Origin: a virus
Strand: one strand, 5' to 3'
Virus record (IMG/VR): IMGVR_UViG_3300034375_010007
Span: 1-64,000 of that record
Length of the DNA: 64,000 nucleotides
The translations under genes were made by a program, and so were the position numbers. This document shows, piece by piece, positions 1,435 through 20,071 of this stretch (position 1 is the stretch's first letter; each line of letters starts with the position of its first letter). Below the pieces are notes generated by a model. The model saw only the letters and a program-made list of their open reading frames with translations. It did not search any database and was not told the origin of the DNA.

Positions 1435-3369
1435 TTATGAGTCGCGCCATAGATTGTTTGAAGCAAACTTAATTACTTCTTCTGCTGAATCCTCGTTATA
1501 ACCGTAGTCATCGATTAGAGTCTGGACCATTGCGTTAAACTTCTTTTGCTGCTTAACATCTCTGGACTTGGACTTTGTCACGATACGAGAAATATCTCTT
1601 ACAGAAGCAACCAACTTGGATTCAATTGCCTCACGGAGCGGACCGTAAGAACGCCAGTCGATTACCTCACCTCTACGAAGCTTCGCAAACATGTAAGAAG
1701 TAATATCGGCACGGAAGTTGTTCTTTGCAGAACCCTTGATACCAATCTGCTCCTCAATAGAGGAAAGGAACTTCTCATCTGCTTCCATCTCTTCGTTTGT
1801 AACACGATCCTTGACTTTGGTGCTATTGACGTAAGCCTCGGCGTGGTCAAGGTAGTTGTTGAATAGGGACTCAGCCTGCTCTTCGTAAGCTGTAACGAAA
1901 GCCTTCGTGATTTCCTTCTCAAGGATAGAAAGATACTCTTCGTGAAGAACCTTTTGAAGGAAAGCCAAGCAACGGCTACGCTCATCAGGGTTTACGATTT
2001 GCTCTTTTACTTGCTTGATAAGAGACTCGCGAATAGAGATTGGAGTAATCATATTCTTTGTGGAGTCGGCTAGTGCAGCATCGATCGCCTTCATGATAAA
2101 GCGAGTAGAGATACCAGTCATACCCTCGTCCTCTACCTCTTCGCGAAGATCCTTGATATCAACCTTCTTGATGAGACCCTTCTCAACAATCTCCTCACCG
2201 TTGTAGATCTTCATCTTGGTTAGGGCATCAACCTTGTTGGAAGGCTTGAGGCGAGAAAGAACGGAGAACATTGCAGCAACCCGTAGTGTGTGCGGAGCAA
2301 TGTGACTATCAAAGTCAGAACGACCGATCAACTTCTCATAGATTCTTACTTCCTGATCAACCTCAAGGCAGTAAGGAACATTGACACGAACGATACGGTC
2401 AAGGATAGCCTCGTTTGTGTGCTCAGCCTTGAACTTGTTCCACTCTGCTTCGTTACAGTGAGCAAGAATAACACCATCAAAGTAAATCATTGCTTGCTTG
2501 CCTGGAGAAGGAACTGACTTCTCCTGGGTTGCTGTGATCATTGTGTGAAGGAACTCAATCTCATTCTTGAAAACCTCAACGAACTCAACGATGCCTCGGT
2601 TGCCGACGTTGAACGCTCCGTTAAGAGACAGAACACGCGGATCGTCCTCTGGGTATAAGTCAAGCTTTGAAATGTCCTCAGAGCCGATTAGAAGGCTTGT
2701 ATCCTGTGTGTTTGGATCCATTGGAGGAACAACACCGACACCCTTGCGCCCACGAACAGAGAAAGAAGACTCTGTGATTGGGAACTTTGTAAAGTCACCA
2801 CCGTACTCCTCTAGAAGTCGGTGACGGCATACAGGGCAAAGGTCGCCTTCAATCTTGATGCCGTATGTCTCGGCAAACTCATCACGCAAAGAACGCGGGA
2901 TAAGGTGAAGAGGCTCCTCACGGATTGGACAGCCATCCAAAGCATAGATTGGATCACACTGCTCAAGTGCTCCCTTGATGTGCTCTACAAGAGCAGACTT
3001 GCCTGCGCCTACCGGACCGAGAAGAAGAAGAACCTGACGGCTCTCCTCGCCCTTCATCGCAGCAGAGTGAAGGAAACGAACAACCTTCTCCAAAGGACGC
3101 TCCATACCAAAGAACTGACCTGAGAAGTAATCGTAAGTCTTTACTGTCTCGCCATTGAAAAGTTTATTACAGCGCGGGTCAGTCTCGTCTAAAACTGTAA
3201 CCCCCTCACCGATAATCTTCTCGTAAAGTCTTTTGTGAGCAAGAGCAGGAATGTTGCGATCTTCCTCAATAAGTTTTAGGTAATCTTCCAGTACCCCGGA
3301 GAACTTCTCTCTCTTCTTACTCTCACGGTGTTCTCTAACCGATTCGAGAAACTTGCTTGTTGTGGTCAT
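1435..3369 (-). CDS. prkA: PrkA family AAA+ serine protein kinase (YeaG-like)
   Basis: From the ATG at 3369 the protein is 644 aa, the usual length of bacterial YeaG/PrkA. The start is chosen because GGGAG sits 7 bases before it; an ATG 21 bases further upstream would overlap spoVR. Visible motifs are the Walker A GPVGAGKS (about residue 114), a CPVC pair (about 180) and FDGVILAHCNEAEW, typical of PrkA, with the kinase-like C-terminal part intact. Bacterial PrkA proteins are cytoplasmic AAA+ proteins linked to starvation, stress and sporulation, reported as kinases and in Bacillus as a protease-like ATPase. It is the last gene of the yeaH-spoVR-prkA operon, one base after spoVR. No disruption is seen. 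Confidence 0.95.
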   Translation of the reverse strand: MTTTSKFLESVREHRESKKREKFSGVLEDYLKLIEEDRNIPALAHKRLYEKIIGEGVTVLDETDPRCNKLFNGETVKTYDYFSGQFFGMERPLEKVVRFLHSAAMKGEESRQVLLLLGPVGAGKSALVEHIKGALEQCDPIYALDGCPIREEPLHLIPRSLRDEFAETYGIKIEGDLCPVCRHRLLEEYGGDFTKFPITESSFSVRGRKGVGVVPPMDPNTQDTSLLIGSEDISKLDLYPEDDPRVLSLNGAFNVGNRGIVEFVEVFKNEIEFLHTMITATQEKSVPSPGKQAMIYFDGVILAHCNEAEWNKFKAEHTNEAILDRIVRVNVPYCLEVDQEVRIYEKLIGRSDFDSHIAPHTLRVAAMFSVLSRLKPSNKVDALTKMKIYNGEEIVEKGLIKKVDIKDLREEVEDEGMTGISTRFIMKAIDAALADSTKNMITPISIRESLIKQVKEQIVNPDERSRCLAFLQKVLHEEYLSILEKEITKAFVTAYEEQAESLFNNYLDHAEAYVNSTKVKDRVTNEEMEADEKFLSSIEEQIGIKGSAKNNFRADITSYMFAKLRRGEVIDWRSYGPLREAIESKLVASVRDISRIVTKSKSRDVKQQKKFNAMVQTLIDDYGYNEDSAEEVIKFASNNLWRDS

Positions 3370-3370
3370 G

Positions 3371-4678
3371 CTAAAACTCCCATATTTCATCTTCCACTAT
3401 GGTGATTAATTTCACCTCACCACGCCAAAGGGCTTTAATGTGATCAAACACTTTACGCGCGTAATTCATTTCTAAATCTCTACCATCGTGCTCGTGAACG
3501 AGAGAAAGTGTTCCATCTTTCTCAATCTCTTCTACGAATACGACCGGTATTCTGTTGAGACCTACATTCGTAATCATCGCATCACGAACTTTCTCCCAAC
3601 CTTCTACATCCGATATATCATCTACTATACTAGATTGTTGCTTCCTATTAAAGGAATAAGAGAAATAATTATGCTCTCTCATAAATTCTTCATCAGTATA
3701 AAAACGTAGGAATGTTATATCGTTATGAACTTCTCGGATTGTCTTTGCTTCCTCGAAACCTTTCTCTTCAATAATCTTCTGGAAGAGAGTGTATCCTAAA
3801 TGATAAGGATTGATTTGTCCAAGGTGCGGACGAATAACTTGATTGTGTAGCTTTACAAAAGGCAAATAAAGACCATCAGGAAGATTTAGTTCGTTGATAA
3901 TCTTTTGATGGATTGTGCAAGCCCATCCTTCGTTCATTACCTTTGTAAGAGCCTGCGGAATAAAGTATTTTGAAGATTCTTCAACAATAAGAATAAGATT
4001 TCTCTCCCACTCCTCAAGATTTTTGCTGTGCTCGGCAATAAAACGAAGAAGATTGTACTCAGGACGTATAGGAACCTTGCTTAGATTTGGATTGTAGTCC
4101 GGATTTTCCATCATCTTCTCTTTTTCAGACTCAATAATCTCAGCACGGGTCTTATATTTGATGCCTGGGTATCTTGGAACCTGATATTTGATTGAGTGAG
4201 CGGCATCTAGGATGTTTTCAACTTTATCAATACCGATTGAAGGATCCTCAATCAACTGACGAACGTATTTCGCAGCAGATTTGAAGCTTGAAATAATGTT
4301 TGAAGGGTCTGTGTGAGCAAACATTCGGTTCTGTTTGAAGAAATCCGAGTGTCCAACACAGTGAGCCATCGTTAGAATGTGAATGTAAAGAGCATTTTCT
4401 CTCATCAAGTAAGCGATTGACGGATTTGAGTTGATAATCATCTCATATGGAAGCCCAGTTTGCCCCATATTGTAAAGAGTGTGAGTTCTTTCATACTCTT
4501 TTCCGTAAGACCAGTGTCGATAATGCGTTGGAAGACCTGTGTAAGCCATCGCTCCAAGCATTTCAGCGTAATCAATGATCTCGTAATCGATTGGAAACCA
4601 ATCTAATCCTAAATCTTCGCCTACACGACAGATTTTGTCGTCCCATTTTTGTAGATCTGCGACTGTCCAGTCACTCAT
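3371..4678 (-). CDS. spoVR: SpoVR family protein (YcgB-like)
   Basis: A 435-aa SpoVR-family protein, slightly shorter than B. subtilis SpoVR and E. coli YcgB. The family block MNEGWACTIHQKI, then PHLGQINPYHLGYTLFQKI, lies around residues 247-300. SpoVR is needed for spore cortex formation in Bacillus, but the family is widespread in non-sporing proteobacteria, almost always next to prkA and yeaH; its biochemistry is unresolved. The start overlaps the yeaH stop as ATGA and its stop lies one base before prkA, so all three are translationally coupled. Length and conserved blocks suggest an active gene. Confidence 0.93.
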   Translation of the reverse strand: MSDWTVADLQKWDDKICRVGEDLGLDWFPIDYEIIDYAEMLGAMAYTGLPTHYRHWSYGKEYERTHTLYNMGQTGLPYEMIINSNPSIAYLMRENALYIHILTMAHCVGHSDFFKQNRMFAHTDPSNIISSFKSAAKYVRQLIEDPSIGIDKVENILDAAHSIKYQVPRYPGIKYKTRAEIIESEKEKMMENPDYNPNLSKVPIRPEYNLLRFIAEHSKNLEEWERNLILIVEESSKYFIPQALTKVMNEGWACTIHQKIINELNLPDGLYLPFVKLHNQVIRPHLGQINPYHLGYTLFQKIIEEKGFEEAKTIREVHNDITFLRFYTDEEFMREHNYFSYSFNRKQQSSIVDDISDVEGWEKVRDAMITNVGLNRIPVVFVEEIEKDGTLSLVHEHDGRDLEMNYARKVFDHIKALWRGEVKLITIVEDEIWEF

Positions 4679-5919
4679 TTTGTTTTACTCCCACCAAAAA
4701 GAGATTTGAAAGCCATCCAGATGTGCTCTGTCTGTCCAATCATCACTCTCTTGAACTTTTTATCAGTAATCGGTCTCAATCTTGCCCATAGATTATCTAA
4801 CTCTTCGTTCTTCCACGCCGAAAAGTTTGCCCATGGGCTGTTTTTGACTCCACTATCTTCCAAAGAATCGTCATCCAAGCCTTCGTAACTCTCATTTATC
4901 TCACAATAAGCTGTCAGTTGACTAATATCTTTGATTTCTTTGAACAAATCTATACATTTTTCGTTGTCGGAAGCCCAGTTTTCACCATCGCCACAATAAA
5001 ATGTATAAATATTCCAAGCATTTGGATGATATTCTTTCTCAACTATCTCCATTTGCATTTTCAAAGCAGATGAAATGATCGTTCCACCAAAAGTTCCAAC
5101 TTTAAAGAAGTCATCTTCGCTTACACGCTCGGCATTGGTCGAGTGAGAGATAAAAACAACCTCAACTTTCTCATATCGGTGGTTCAAGAACTGATAAAGC
5201 AGGAAAAAGAAGGATCTTGCAAGGTATTTGCGGTCCTGAGACATTGATCCAGACACATCCATCAGAAAAAAGATGACTGCTGACGAGTTTTCTTTCGCTT
5301 TTGGCTTAATGTGATGGTATTTGAGGTCATCTTTGTGAAAAGGAAAGCGCTCATCGGACTCTGGGTCGTAAGCACCGGTCTTTTCAGCCATTTTTTGACG
5401 ACGGATCTTTCTTTTTAGTGTTTCTTTCTTTGAAAGTCTCGGTCGGATGCCCTGAAAGCGATATCCTTTACGTTTTACGGTCTCTTGTGTGATAAAACGG
5501 AACTGCTTCTTCTCTAAATCTGGAAGTTCAAGGTCTGCAAACAGATATTCAGCCAACTCTTCAAGCGAAACCTCTACGTCGTAGTATTGATCACCTTTTT
5601 TATCGGATGCTTTGCCTGTTCCTTGTCCAGAACCCTTTTGGGCACGTTGTTTTCCGATTTTTTGGCCTCTTTTTAGAGAATGCTCGCCACCAGATCCAAC
5701 AGTTTTGTTTTGCTGTCCAGATCCGTAGACAAATCGGTACTCCTTGAGCCCTCTAACAGGAACTCTAATCTTTTTCTTGCCGTTTTGACCGATGATTGAC
5801 TCCTCAGCAATCACATCCTTGATAGATTCTTTGATTGCTTTTTCAATCTTCTTTTTATGCCGCGATCGATCGCTTGCGGCGCGGTCTACAATAGACTCGT
5901 GTTTACGAAATACGCTCAT
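4675..5919 (-). CDS. yeaH: YeaH/YhbH family VWA-domain protein (DUF444)
   Basis: A 414-aa protein, close to E. coli YeaH (427 aa). The N-terminus is basic (RSRHKKKIEKAI), the middle is Gly/Lys/Gln-rich, and a von Willebrand A domain follows with the metal site MDVSGSMS at about residues 218-225 and a second metal-site threonine in GGTIIS. YeaH is the VWA partner encoded with PrkA, reminiscent of MoxR/RavA-VWA ATPase-adaptor pairs (analogy, not proof). First gene of the reverse operon. A weak AGGA lies only 2 bases before the ATG. Confidence 0.93.
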   Translation of the reverse strand: MSVFRKHESIVDRAASDRSRHKKKIEKAIKESIKDVIAEESIIGQNGKKKIRVPVRGLKEYRFVYGSGQQNKTVGSGGEHSLKRGQKIGKQRAQKGSGQGTGKASDKKGDQYYDVEVSLEELAEYLFADLELPDLEKKQFRFITQETVKRKGYRFQGIRPRLSKKETLKRKIRRQKMAEKTGAYDPESDERFPFHKDDLKYHHIKPKAKENSSAVIFFLMDVSGSMSQDRKYLARSFFFLLYQFLNHRYEKVEVVFISHSTNAERVSEDDFFKVGTFGGTIISSALKMQMEIVEKEYHPNAWNIYTFYCGDGENWASDNEKCIDLFKEIKDISQLTAYCEINESYEGLDDDSLEDSGVKNSPWANFSAWKNEELDNLWARLRPITDKKFKRVMIGQTEHIWMAFKSLFGGSKTK

Positions 5920-5967
5920 ATCCTAAATACTTTACCACCCACTCTAAAAACATTTTAGTTTTGCTGT

Positions 5968-5997
5968 TATTAGCAGTATAATACATAAATGCTAATA
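5968..5997. promoter_or_regulatory. Divergent promoter with 8-bp inverted repeat (operator candidate)
   Basis: Between the divergent yeaH operon and the hydroxylase gene, TATTAGCA (5968-5975) and TGCTAATA (5990-5997) form a perfect 8-bp inverted repeat with a 14-base centre. The centre holds TATAAT (5977-5982) on the plus strand and, overlapping it, TATTAT (5983-5978) on the minus strand. The right arm overlaps the ATG at 5989. A dimeric regulator bound here would block both directions. No good -35 is visible for either, so promoter strength is uncertain. Confidence 0.5.
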
Positions 5998-6438
5998 CTT
6001 CAAGTCTTATTTCTTCTTATTATCGGTCATTTCACAGCGGCACTCTTAGTATACCTGAACCATCGCTTCGTTTTTCACGGAAAGTTAGGTACAAAAGGTC
6101 CCTTAAAATTTATTCGTAGATATCATACACTACACCACGCGCACCCGAAAGGTGAAAGAGTATACGATCACATTTATATGCCCGTATGGGCGCGTGTGAT
6201 GTTTGTAGCCATTTATGTAGGCATCTCTTTTGTCTCGCTAGCGTTTGCTCTCGGGATGCTAACATTTTCTATATATTATGGCTACAATCACTTGGCGATT
6301 CACGAAAAAAAGCACAGAAATCATTCTTATTTTCATCACACGCTACATCACAAGGATCCGACTGTTAATTTTTCCGGAATGTATCCCTTTATAGACAAAC
6401 TATTCTCTACTTATAAAGAGAGTAGACCGATACTATGA
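5989..6438 (+). CDS. Membrane fatty acid hydroxylase / carotenoid hydroxylase-like protein
   Basis: A 149-aa integral membrane protein of the fatty acid hydroxylase superfamily. It carries the di-iron histidine clusters: HRFVFH (25-30), HTLHHAH (46-52), HEKKHRNH (105-112) and HHTLHH (116-121). Hydrophobic segments at about 2-24 and 68-98 fit a membrane oxygenase that hydroxylates acyl chains, sterols or carotenoids with O2. All metal ligands appear present. The substrate cannot be read. There is no SD; a TATAAT ends 6 bases before the ATG, so a leaderless transcript is possible. The YciA-like thioesterase fragment downstream would make two lipid-related genes. Confidence 0.8.
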   Translation: MLILQVLFLLIIGHFTAALLVYLNHRFVFHGKLGTKGPLKFIRRYHTLHHAHPKGERVYDHIYMPVWARVMFVAIYVGISFVSLAFALGMLTFSIYYGYNHLAIHEKKHRNHSYFHHTLHHKDPTVNFSGMYPFIDKLFSTYKESRPIL

Positions 6439-7577: not shown

Positions 7578-7776
7578 TCAAGGAGAGATCCGACAAATCA
7601 GTTCTGCTATTAATGAATTGTTTGAAAAGGTTGATAGACTTAAATCAAAACTTGATAGTCTTTGTAACGAAACCGGCGGTTGCGAGCATATAAAGAAAGT
7701 CAATCGCGAAATACTAAAAAAGAAAGATAGCATCTTAAATGGAACTCATATCAACGCACTTCGTAAAGAAGAATGA
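7567..7776 (+). CDS. Small coiled-coil protein
   Basis: A 69-aa charged helical protein with heptad-like spacing (IRQISSAINELFEKVDRLKSKL, residues about 8-29) and two cysteines. Starts inside the amidase gene and ends inside the thioesterase gene, in different frames, as expected for packed phage genes. Function unknown. An SD-like GGAAATAGAAG precedes the start. Confidence 0.5.
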   Translation: MDSDQGEIRQISSAINELFEKVDRLKSKLDSLCNETGGCEHIKKVNREILKKKDSILNGTHINALRKEE

Positions 7777-8139
7777 TGTAGGCTACCACGGCAACCTTTT
7801 CGGAGGCATTATGCTAGCGTGGTTAGATGAAGCCGCAGCAGCATTTGCTGCCCAAGTTGCCGACACCCCAAGAATGGTCACAAGACACATATCCAGTCTG
7901 ACCTTCCAGAAGCCCGCCAGACCGGGTCAAATCATCAAGATATATGGAGAGGTGGCTAAGGTAGGAAAACCTCTCTAACGCTGAATATGGAGGCGAGAAG
8001 GCACTCTGTGTATAACGGCACCCAACGAGCAATCGTCAGCACTCAAATGGTCTTCGTTCGCATTGACGGAGATGGTGAAGCAATCCCGATTTCTGAAAAG
8101 GTTCGTCAGAAATACAGAGATCCCAAAGATTTCACTTAA
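7739..8139 (+). pseudogene. YciA-type acyl-CoA thioesterase, interrupted by a one-base frameshift
   Basis: A hot-dog-fold thioesterase of the YciA/BFIT type (YHGNLFGGIMLAWLDEAAA, residues about 16-34, includes the catalytic Asp region). The first frame stops at 7978 after GKPL. If read one base back at the A-run in GGAAAACC (7964-7971), the frame continues as TSLTLNMEARRHSVYNGTQ to VRQKYRDPKDFT and a stop at 8137-8139, giving a full-length family member of about 133 aa. It is either a recent pseudogene, a base-calling or assembly error in the A-run, or a -1 frameshift gene. A standard X-XXY-YYZ slippery heptamer is not present in frame. Confidence 0.8.
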
Positions 8140-8146
8140 ATAACAC

Positions 8147-17443: not shown

Positions 17444-17758
17444 GGGGGGTGACAGGTTTCGACAGGGTAAGGAAGATGGATAGTGCAGGTTGTGACAGCT
17501 AACTCAATCACATAAATCTTTAGTTAGAAACATATAACTGCAAACGACGCAAATTACGGTTTAGCACTAGCTGCTTAATCCCCGGTTGTTCTTCACCGGG
17601 TGTCCAAGAAGAACAAACAAAAACAAAACGCTTTTGCTTTTTTGAGCGTATCGAATCAAATTTGATACTTTGTTTATTTAGAGAAATAAACTAAACCTGT
17701 GAATGACTTGAAGTTGGATATACTTTGGACGCGCGTTCGAATCGCGCCACCTCCACCA
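17444..17758 (+). ncRNA. ssrA: tmRNA (one-piece), tag ANDANYGLALAA
   Basis: The 5' end GGGGGTG pairs with CACCTCC at the 3' end, followed by an encoded A-CCA (17755-17758). A T-arm with TTCGAAT and a GCGCG/CGCGC stem is present. The mRNA-like part runs from GCA at 17540 to TAA at 17576-17578 and codes for a 12-residue tag ending ALAA, as expected for a proteolysis tag. tmRNA with SmpB frees stalled ribosomes and marks the product for ClpXP. No smpB is seen in the window, so host SmpB would be used. There are no CDS between 17411 and 17829. Confidence 0.95.
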
Positions 17759-19443: not shown

Positions 19444-19652
19444 TAGTTAAAAAAGGAACAACAGTTTATCCTTCCATAAAAGGAGAATATAATTTTCATT
19501 ATCCTCAGATCGAGGATCCATATGTTTTACTGATGGACATAGAAGTTGACAGGCTTCATTGGGCAGAAAGAGATAATAAAGTTGCTGTAAAAGTTTGTAG
19601 TCCTGAAAACTATCTACCTTATAGTGTACTATGGTTAGAGACGCCGGTATAG
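19440..19652 (+). CDS. Small protein of unknown function
   Basis: A 70-aa beta-rich protein (MIVKKGTTVYPSIKGEYNF, then VAVKVCSPENYLPYSVLWLE). Start overlaps the aldolase stop (ATGA). It ends 10 bases into the tRNA-Thr gene, so the C-terminus overlaps the tRNA. A real gene is plausible but not certain. Confidence 0.45.
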   Translation: MIVKKGTTVYPSIKGEYNFHYPQIEDPYVLLMDIEVDRLHWAERDNKVAVKVCSPENYLPYSVLWLETPV

Positions 19653-19718
19653 CTCAGTTGGTAGAGCACCATTCTTGTAAAGTGGATGTCCACAGTTCGA
19701 ATCTGTGTGCCGGCACCA
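19643..19718 (+). tRNA. tRNA-Thr (UGU)
   Basis: A 76-base cloverleaf: acceptor GCCGGTA/TGCCGGC, D-arm TAGCTCAGTTGGTAGAGCA, anticodon loop CTTGTAA (anticodon TGT), T-loop TTCGAAT, and encoded CCA. Confidence 0.95.
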
Positions 19719-19737
19719 TAAAACTAAATATTTCCTT

Positions 19738-19813
19738 GGGGATGTAGCTCAGTTGGGAGAGCATCAGTTTTGCATACTGAGGGTCGTAGGTTCGATTCCT
19801 ATCATCTCCACCA
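19738..19813 (+). tRNA. tRNA-Ala (UGC)
   Basis: A 76-base cloverleaf: acceptor GGGGATG/CATCTCC, anticodon stem TCAGT/ACTGA with loop TTTGCAT (anticodon TGC), T-loop TTCGATT, and encoded CCA. Confidence 0.95.
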
Positions 19814-19818
19814 TTTTA

Positions 19819-19895
19819 GGGCGGCTAGCTCAGTTGGTTAGAGCAGTTGTTTTACACGCATCAGGTCGGGAGTTCGAATCTCTCGCCGCCCACCA
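19819..19895 (+). tRNA. tRNA-Val (UAC)
   Basis: A 77-base cloverleaf: acceptor GGGCGGC/GCCGCCC, anticodon loop TTTACAC (anticodon TAC), T-loop TTCGAAT, and encoded CCA. The anticodon stem GTTGT/GCATC has one T-T mismatch. Confidence 0.9.
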
Positions 19896-19899
19896 TAAT

Positions 19900-19975
19900 C
19901 AGGGCGTAGGGCAGGGGATGTCCCGCTGGTTTTGGGAACCAGAACACGTTGGTTCGATTCCAACCGCCCTGACCA
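19900..19975 (+). tRNA. tRNA-Pro (UGG)
   Basis: A 76-base cloverleaf: acceptor CAGGGCG/CGCCCTG (C at position 1, usual for proline), anticodon stem CTGGT/ACCAG with loop TTTGGGA (anticodon TGG), T-loop TTCGATT, and encoded CCA. Confidence 0.93.
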
Positions 19976-19980
19976 TTTTT

Positions 19981-20071
19981 AGAGAGGTGTCCGAGTGGCC
20001 GAAGGAGCAGCATTGGAAATGCTGTGTAGGTTCAAAGCCTACCGGGGGTTCGAATCCCCCCCTCTCTGCCA
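19981..20071 (+). tRNA. tRNA-Ser (GGA)
   Basis: A 91-base class II tRNA: acceptor AGAGAGG/CCTCTCT, anticodon stem CAGCA/TGCTG with loop TTGGAAA (anticodon GGA), a long variable arm, T-loop TTCGAAT, G discriminator and encoded CCA. Confidence 0.95.

What the first reader, a model, noticed from the sequence alone, without database searches (positions are those of the whole stretch)
1435..5919. Complete yeaH-spoVR-prkA operon carried by a phage
The full three-gene bacterial module (VWA protein, SpoVR, AAA+ kinase PrkA) is present with intact key motifs, translational coupling (ATGA overlap, one-base gap), its own intrinsic terminator and a divergent regulatory region. It is the only reverse-strand operon in the window. 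In bacteria this set responds to starvation and stress. A phage copy could hold the host in a stress-tolerant or dormant-like state, or remodel host proteins through the AAA+/VWA pair.
Basis: partly seen in the sequence, partly recalled or inferred. Interest (0 to 1): 0.8.

Follow-up and report, generated by a model that had tools for sequence, protein, structure and literature searches.

The report
Bacterial starvation-response trio in T4-like phages
A large ocean phage carries all three genes of a poorly understood bacterial starvation/sporulation system (PrkA, YhbH, SpoVR), and relatives of this phage kept the trio intact, in one phage-specific lineage, in 81 of 82 copies checked (the other is cut by a contig end), so it is a real, selected part of the phage rather than a stray piece of host DNA, although what it does is untested.

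Summary
Positions 1435-5919 (minus strand) encode full-length YhbH/YeaH (DUF444, VWA), SpoVR and PrkA, with intact motifs, an ATGA overlap and a strong terminator. The contig is a genuine phage, and the same junctions recur in independently assembled contigs. It is not unique. A single well-supported phage clade of 82 sampled PrkA loci holds the trio in the order yhbH-spoVR-prkA in 81; the exception is cut by a contig end. All nine contigs of 165-289 kb that I tested carry a T4-type gp23 capsid gene. All three trees recover this phage clade. Its nearest bacterial relatives are a Bacillota clade plus one Rhodospirillales MAG, with the order prkA-yhbH-spoVR. dN/dS is about 0.01-0.09. Phage-borne copies are already annotated (Thermus phages YS40, MN1, Lalka; Ralstonia phage RsoM2USA) or present in 600-kb huge phages, and spoVR is a known viral gene in oxygen-minimum zones. 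I found no paper describing the intact trio as a conserved phage system. The most likely function is the bacterial one: an AAA+ motor (PrkA) with a VWA adaptor (YhbH) acting with SpoVR to keep a growth-limited host productive. A role in virion assembly remains open. The 'dormancy' reading is untested.

The parts
4675..5919 (-). yhbH/yeaH (DUF444): VWA-domain protein, first gene of the operon, 414 aa, MIDAS residues D221-x-S223-x-S225, T280, D311
   Evidence: Pfam DUF444 E=4e-107; TIGR02877 spore_yhbH E=1e-115, below its cut-off; AlphaFold VWA core matches VWA structures; T280 and D311 in all phage copies, D-x-S-x-S motif kept in all
3371..4678 (-). spoVR: 435 aa, ATGA overlap with yhbH; H55, H106, H110, E250 conserved from phages to bacteria (putative metal site, inferred)
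   Evidence: Pfam SpoVR E=2e-113 and SpoVR_C; AlphaFold pLDDT 91.5; no solved relative by sequence or fold; conservation
1435..3390 (-). prkA/yeaG: AAA+ ATPase with PrkA C-terminal domain, 651 aa from first ATG (644 aa from the likelier ATG at 3369); Walker A GPVGAGKS, D305, N313, R332
   Evidence: Pfam AAA_PrkA + PrkA; related to solved PrkA 9xip, E=1e-99; motif conservation in 83 phage copies
1377..1404 (-). intrinsic-terminator-like hairpin downstream of prkA (12-bp stem, TTTTATTG tail), inside the 3' end of the converging ORF 1209-1421
5920..5988 (.). 69-bp divergent intergenic gap between yhbH and the plus-strand ORF at 5989; probable promoter region for both sides (inferred only)
   Evidence: no promoter-like or T4-late-promoter enrichment over shuffles

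Best explanation
The locus is a phage-adapted copy of the bacterial PrkA-YhbH-SpoVR (YeaG-YeaH-YcgB) machine. Shown: an old, vertically kept phage lineage of the intact trio in large T4-type phages, with the order yhbH-spoVR-prkA, which differs from that of its nearest bacterial kin. Inferred: it most likely does in the infected cell what the bacterial trio does. PrkA forms an ATP-driven AAA+ ring. YhbH uses its VWA/MIDAS face as the adaptor that couples the ring to its client. SpoVR, a helical protein with conserved His/Glu residues that look like a metal site, is the partner the pair activates or works with, much as AAA+/VWA pairs such as NorQ-NorD act on a metalloprotein. The benefit would be to keep a starved or stressed host productive long enough to finish a long infection, independently of the host's own starvation-controlled copy.
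For: Full-length families and motifs. 81 of 82 phage-clade PrkA loci have all three genes in order, the exception being cut by a contig end, so the proteins are probably needed together. dN/dS 0.01-0.09 where dS is not saturated. One phage clade in each gene tree (SH-aLRT 100, 100, 97) and 100/100 in the concatenated tree. Pairwise distances of the three proteins correlate (r 0.65-0.77). Walker/MIDAS residues shared with bacterial copies, implying the same chemistry. YhbH fold hits include the NorQD complex and Rea1-MIDAS. The cassette sits in at least four different gene neighbourhoods, as expected of an autonomous accessory unit. In bacteria the trio is an operon strongly induced by (p)ppGpp (PMC3188799) and yeaG is needed in nitrogen starvation (PMC4664914). 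[quoted passage not shown]
Against: I found no expression, biochemical or genetic data for any phage copy, and the host is unknown. The biochemical activity of the bacterial trio is itself unsettled, and an R. etli prkA mutant showed no phenotype in the survival and stress tests or growth defect on 384 nitrogen sources (PMC3188799). In 10-11 loci the module follows gp23 capsid genes, and in 38 it precedes a weakly GroEL-like gene, which fits late or assembly functions as well. The SpoVR metal site is inferred from conservation and helix spacing only; no coordinates were available to measure distances.
Confidence: 0.45

Rival explanations
1. The trio is a virion-morphogenesis or late proteostasis machine: PrkA-YhbH act as chaperone and co-chaperone for capsid or tail proteins and SpoVR is a dedicated client or processing factor.
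For: gp23 capsid and head-tail adaptor genes shortly upstream in 10-11 loci; Thermus phage Lalka8 has the trio between the minor head protein and TerL; a GroEL-like gene follows PrkA in 38 loci; a MoxR-vWA pair in jumbo phages was proposed for virion assembly, by analogy with an archaeal virus where such a pair is needed for tail assembly (PMC7824862).
Against: Most loci are not next to structural genes and the cassette moves between neighbourhoods; the GroEL similarity is weak (E=1e-7 in PHROGs) and Pfam finds nothing; the key residues are the bacterial ones; nearly all isolated phages do without it (only 16 phage records matched, none close).
Confidence: 0.27
2. It holds the host in a dormant-like, stress-tolerant state, for example delaying lysis or supporting pseudolysogeny.
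For: E. coli yeaG promotes a metabolically quiet subpopulation in nitrogen starvation and supports rpoS (PMC4664914); authors of PMC8940887 propose that viral spo genes aid host persistence.
Against: The phages are large T4-type phages and the window carries an amidase that looks like an endolysin; I did not search the record for lysogeny genes; no evidence that the phage gains from halting the host.
Confidence: 0.15
3. Passenger host DNA or a contig/binning artefact.
For: Enterobacter phage LAU1 carries yeaG-yeaH at the very end of its record, a place where packaged host DNA is expected, so such artefacts may occur in databases.
Against: Conserved junctions in independently assembled contigs, phage-only clade, purifying selection, 81 of 82 intact.
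Confidence: 0.02

Closest known systems
Bacterial prkA-yhbH-spoVR operon (yeaG-yeaH and ycgB in E. coli; R. etli CH02817-CH02815)
   Same: All three families full length with the same key residues; operon arrangement
   Different: Order yhbH-spoVR-prkA instead of prkA-yhbH-spoVR; PrkA at most about 60% identical to true bacterial copies; a separate phage clade; no known starvation control
Thermus phages YS40, TMA, phiLo, MN1, Lalka8/27
   Same: Phage-borne trio; in Lalka8, MN1 and YS40 the order is the same yhbH-spoVR-prkA (YS40 with one ORF inserted)
   Different: PrkA only about 33% identical; separate place in all trees; some SpoVR residues not conserved
600-kb huge phages (LR745206, LR756502, LR756504, LR756511) and Ralstonia jumbo phage RsoM2USA
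   Same: Phages with the genes
   Different: Where all three were located together, order prkA-yhbH-spoVR; three group with proteobacterial copies and one (LR756511) with Bdellovibrionota-type copies, so separate acquisitions; RsoM2USA known from its paper only
Jumbo-phage MoxR-vWA chaperone pair (PMC7824862)
   Same: AAA+ plus VWA logic in phages
   Different: A different AAA+ family (MoxR), a metallopeptidase-fused VWA, no SpoVR
NorQ-NorD
   Same: AAA+ motor with VWA adaptor; NorQD appears among the YhbH fold matches
   Different: A structural analogy only; different AAA+ family and client

Membership tests
PrkA-YhbH-SpoVR (YeaG-YeaH-YcgB) module | PrkA with AAA_PrkA and PrkA C-terminal domains | tested here: met
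   Walker A, D305, N313, R332 in all phage copies
PrkA-YhbH-SpoVR (YeaG-YeaH-YcgB) module | DUF444/YhbH VWA protein with intact MIDAS | tested here: met
PrkA-YhbH-SpoVR (YeaG-YeaH-YcgB) module | SpoVR protein | tested here: met
   H55, H106, H110 and E250 invariant in phages and comparison sequences except one phage copy at H55
PrkA-YhbH-SpoVR (YeaG-YeaH-YcgB) module | Three adjacent co-directional genes | tested here: met
   the order differs from most sampled bacteria
PrkA-YhbH-SpoVR (YeaG-YeaH-YcgB) module | NCBIfam equivalog level (PRK15455, PRK11767, spore_yhbH) | tested here: not met
   strong matches but below curated cut-offs: same superfamily module, not the named bacterial equivalogs
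PrkA-YhbH-SpoVR (YeaG-YeaH-YcgB) module | Starvation/stationary-phase induced expression; ATPase activity | not testable with these tools
   no expression or biochemical data available
MoxR-vWA phage chaperone pair | MoxR-family AAA+ | tested here: not met
   the AAA+ protein matches AAA_PrkA, not MoxR
Known anti-phage defence systems | Match to a PADLOC model | tested here: not met
   no match for the three proteins

The most novel reading that the evidence does not exclude
PrkA-YhbH-SpoVR in large T4-type phages has become a phage-intrinsic machine, for example a dedicated AAA+/VWA activase or chaperone with SpoVR for virion assembly or late protein processing, so the phage system would reveal the general biochemical activity of a widespread bacterial trio whose activity is unsettled.
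Probability: 0.27. Interest if true: 0.78.

Novelty: new variant of a known kind. Interest (0 to 1): 0.55.

Why it matters
The PrkA-YhbH-SpoVR trio is widespread and strongly stress-regulated in bacteria, yet its biochemical activity is unsettled. A phage lineage that kept all three together as a compact unit suggests that they work as one machine outside sporulation, and gives a genetically simple setting to find the activity. Isolated Thermus phages with the same gene order make it testable now. It also shows that two MAG contigs labelled Halobacteriovorax and Methylococcaceae carry a phage module, and that viral 'sporulation genes' of this kind should be read as trios rather than as single spoVR genes.

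Tried and rejected
Chimera or host DNA: rejected. Recent bacterial acquisition: rejected by trees. Phage order as a phage-only hallmark: weakened, since Bacillota genome G014 also has yhbH-spoVR-prkA and G061 has spoVR directly before prkA. Reverse-strand layout as a general property: rejected. T4-type late promoter (TATAAATA) upstream of yhbH: no exact site in 82 loci and no enrichment over shuffles. Sigma-70 promoter scan: at chance level. Defence system: no PADLOC match. Fold-based function for SpoVR: no PDB fold match and no informative viral match. gp23 in the 81-kb record of the window: not found; a 91-kb relative also lacks it while nine contigs of 165-289 kb have it, so the window record is probably a fragment. 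Riboswitch or other RNA element at the module: none.

Full report
WHAT IS THERE. Three minus-strand genes at 1435-5919 encode YhbH/YeaH (DUF444, 414 aa), SpoVR (435 aa) and PrkA/YeaG (651 aa from the first ATG; the ATG at 3369 is the likelier start). The yhbH/spoVR junction is an ATGA overlap. A terminator-like hairpin follows prkA at 1404-1377. The claimed regulatory region is the 69-bp divergent gap at 5920-5988; promoter-like sites in the region are not above chance.

IT IS IN A PHAGE AND IS NOT AN ARTEFACT. The window is part of an 81,489-base IMG/VR record with tape-measure-like and baseplate wedge proteins, PhoH, an amidase that looks like an endolysin, a tmRNA and five tRNAs. In contigs from other samples (L002-L006, L054) the neighbouring window genes recur around the module, in the same arrangement in most of them, including the inverted orientation. 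dN/dS against relatives is about 0.01-0.09 where synonymous sites are not saturated.

HOW WIDESPREAD. A search of IMG/VR with the window PrkA found 210 encoding stretches; the best 80 were kept, plus two MAG contigs that are evidently phage (L132, L133). Of these 82 loci, 81 hold yhbH-spoVR-prkA in that order on one strand; the remaining one is cut at its contig end just before spoVR. Of ten contigs tested for the T4-type capsid protein gp23, all nine of 165-289 kb have it; a 91-kb contig does not, nor does the window record. The module lies in at least four neighbourhoods: (A) with a weakly GroEL-like gene and PhoH downstream and, in part of them, Nudix/cytidylyltransferase/helicase genes upstream (38 loci have the GroEL-like gene); (B) shortly after gp23 and a head-tail adaptor gene (10-11 loci); (C) directly before PhoH (5 loci); (D) inverted beside an HNH gene (the window and six other loci). 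It is co-directional with neighbours in 52 of 77 loci upstream and 60 of 74 downstream, so the reverse-strand layout is a local peculiarity.

TREES. In separate PrkA, SpoVR and YhbH trees (LG+C20, SH-aLRT) the window and its relatives form one clade with support 100, 100 and 97. In the concatenated tree (1455 columns) support is 100/100. The nearest bacteria are a Bacillota clade (PrkA 55-60% identical) and one Rhodospirillales MAG (57%), all with order prkA-yhbH-spoVR where the whole trio could be read. The Rhodospirillales copy may branch next to the phages (93/91), which would put the phages inside a bacterial-order clade and imply transfer from bacteria followed by a change of order; this is suggestive, not proven. 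Three huge phages group with proteobacterial copies, LR756511 groups with Bdellovibrionota-type copies, and Thermus phages sit elsewhere: phages probably acquired these genes several times. The order yhbH-spoVR-prkA is shared with Thermus phages and with Bacillota genome G014; G061 has spoVR directly before prkA.

PARTS AND LIKELY MECHANISM. Walker A, D305, N313 and R332 of PrkA are present in all 83 phage copies; T280 and D311 of YhbH in all 82, with the D-x-S-x-S motif kept; in SpoVR, H106, H110, E154, Q242, E250, H257 and H278 are invariant in phages, and H106, H110 and E250 also in all 29 diverse comparison sequences. SpoVR models at pLDDT 91.5 but has no match in the PDB by sequence or fold. 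H106/H110, E154/D158 and E250/H257 sit at helix-compatible spacings on three predicted helices, hence a putative metal site (inference only). YhbH has a confident VWA core whose PDB matches include the NorQD complex and Rea1-MIDAS. PrkA is related to a solved 'serine protein kinase' seen as 30 chains in three entries (9xip, 9xiq, 9xir). From these parts I infer an AAA+ motor (PrkA) coupled by a VWA adaptor (YhbH) to SpoVR as partner. The label 'kinase' is unsafe: B. anthracis PrkA had negligible kinase and protease activity (PMC13001217). In R. [quoted passage not shown] yeaG supports survival in nitrogen starvation in E. coli (PMC4664914). The most economical reading is that the phage supplies its own copy to keep a growth-limited host productive. 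The main rival is virion assembly, suggested by gp23 neighbourhoods, Lalka8 and a proposed MoxR-vWA assembly pair in jumbo phages (PMC7824862). The evidence does not decide between them.

WHAT WAS KNOWN. Phage copies are annotated in Thermus phages, present in unannotated 600-kb phage records, and reported in Ralstonia phage RsoM2USA (PMC8504454, SpoVR ORF28 and PrkA ORF30). spoVR was reported as the most abundant sporulation-type gene among viruses of an oxygen-minimum zone (PMC8940887). Nine searches of open-access full text found no description of the intact trio as a conserved phage system; subscription papers and preprints are mostly not held, so this is not proof of novelty.

LIMITS. The host is unknown; the IMG/VR search used peptide patterns and kept the best 80, so '81 of 82' applies to this clade as sampled; bacterial order was checked in several dozen genomes, not exhaustively; single-gene trees used the quick method.

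Noticed in passing
L252 (G008:C10:44000-63900), L171, L172, L170: In three Bacillota genomes prkA is split at about residue 304-306. In G008 the two halves are 17 kb apart on one contig, with a serine-recombinase-like ORF (L252 17397-18965, by eye) and a molybdopterin-oxidoreductase-type gene cluster between; in G044 they are about 4 kb apart; in G086 on different contigs. This looks like a skin-type intervening element in a sporulation gene.
   Followed up: partly
L132 and L133: Contigs binned in MAGs labelled Methylococcaceae TMED69 and Halobacteriovorax are phage: they carry the phage module with phage-type neighbours (PhoH in L132); the same Halobacteriovorax MAG has a separate PrkA of Bdellovibrionota type.
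   Followed up: yes
window 7739-8140: An acyl-CoA-thioesterase-like (by eye) gene is interrupted by a frameshift in the window but reads as one frame in six related phage loci; may be a sequencing error.
   Followed up: partly
window 5989-6438: Fatty-acid hydroxylase (PF04116) ORF between yhbH and the HNH gene; of the close relatives compared only L003 (same contig as L053) also had it.
   Followed up: no
window 17445-17758 and 19643-20071: tmRNA gene with tag ANDANYGLALAA and five tRNA genes.
   Followed up: no
L118:8743-10062 and 37 other loci: A gene of about 400-470 aa just after prkA, weakly similar to GroEL (PHROG 5725, E=1e-7) but without a Pfam match; its co-occurrence with the module deserves a fold prediction.
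   Followed up: partly
L134: A record titled 'Calditrichales' behaves as Bacillota: the genome search by phylum returned the same set as for Candidatus Dichloromethanomonas, and its trio groups with that clade.
   Followed up: partly
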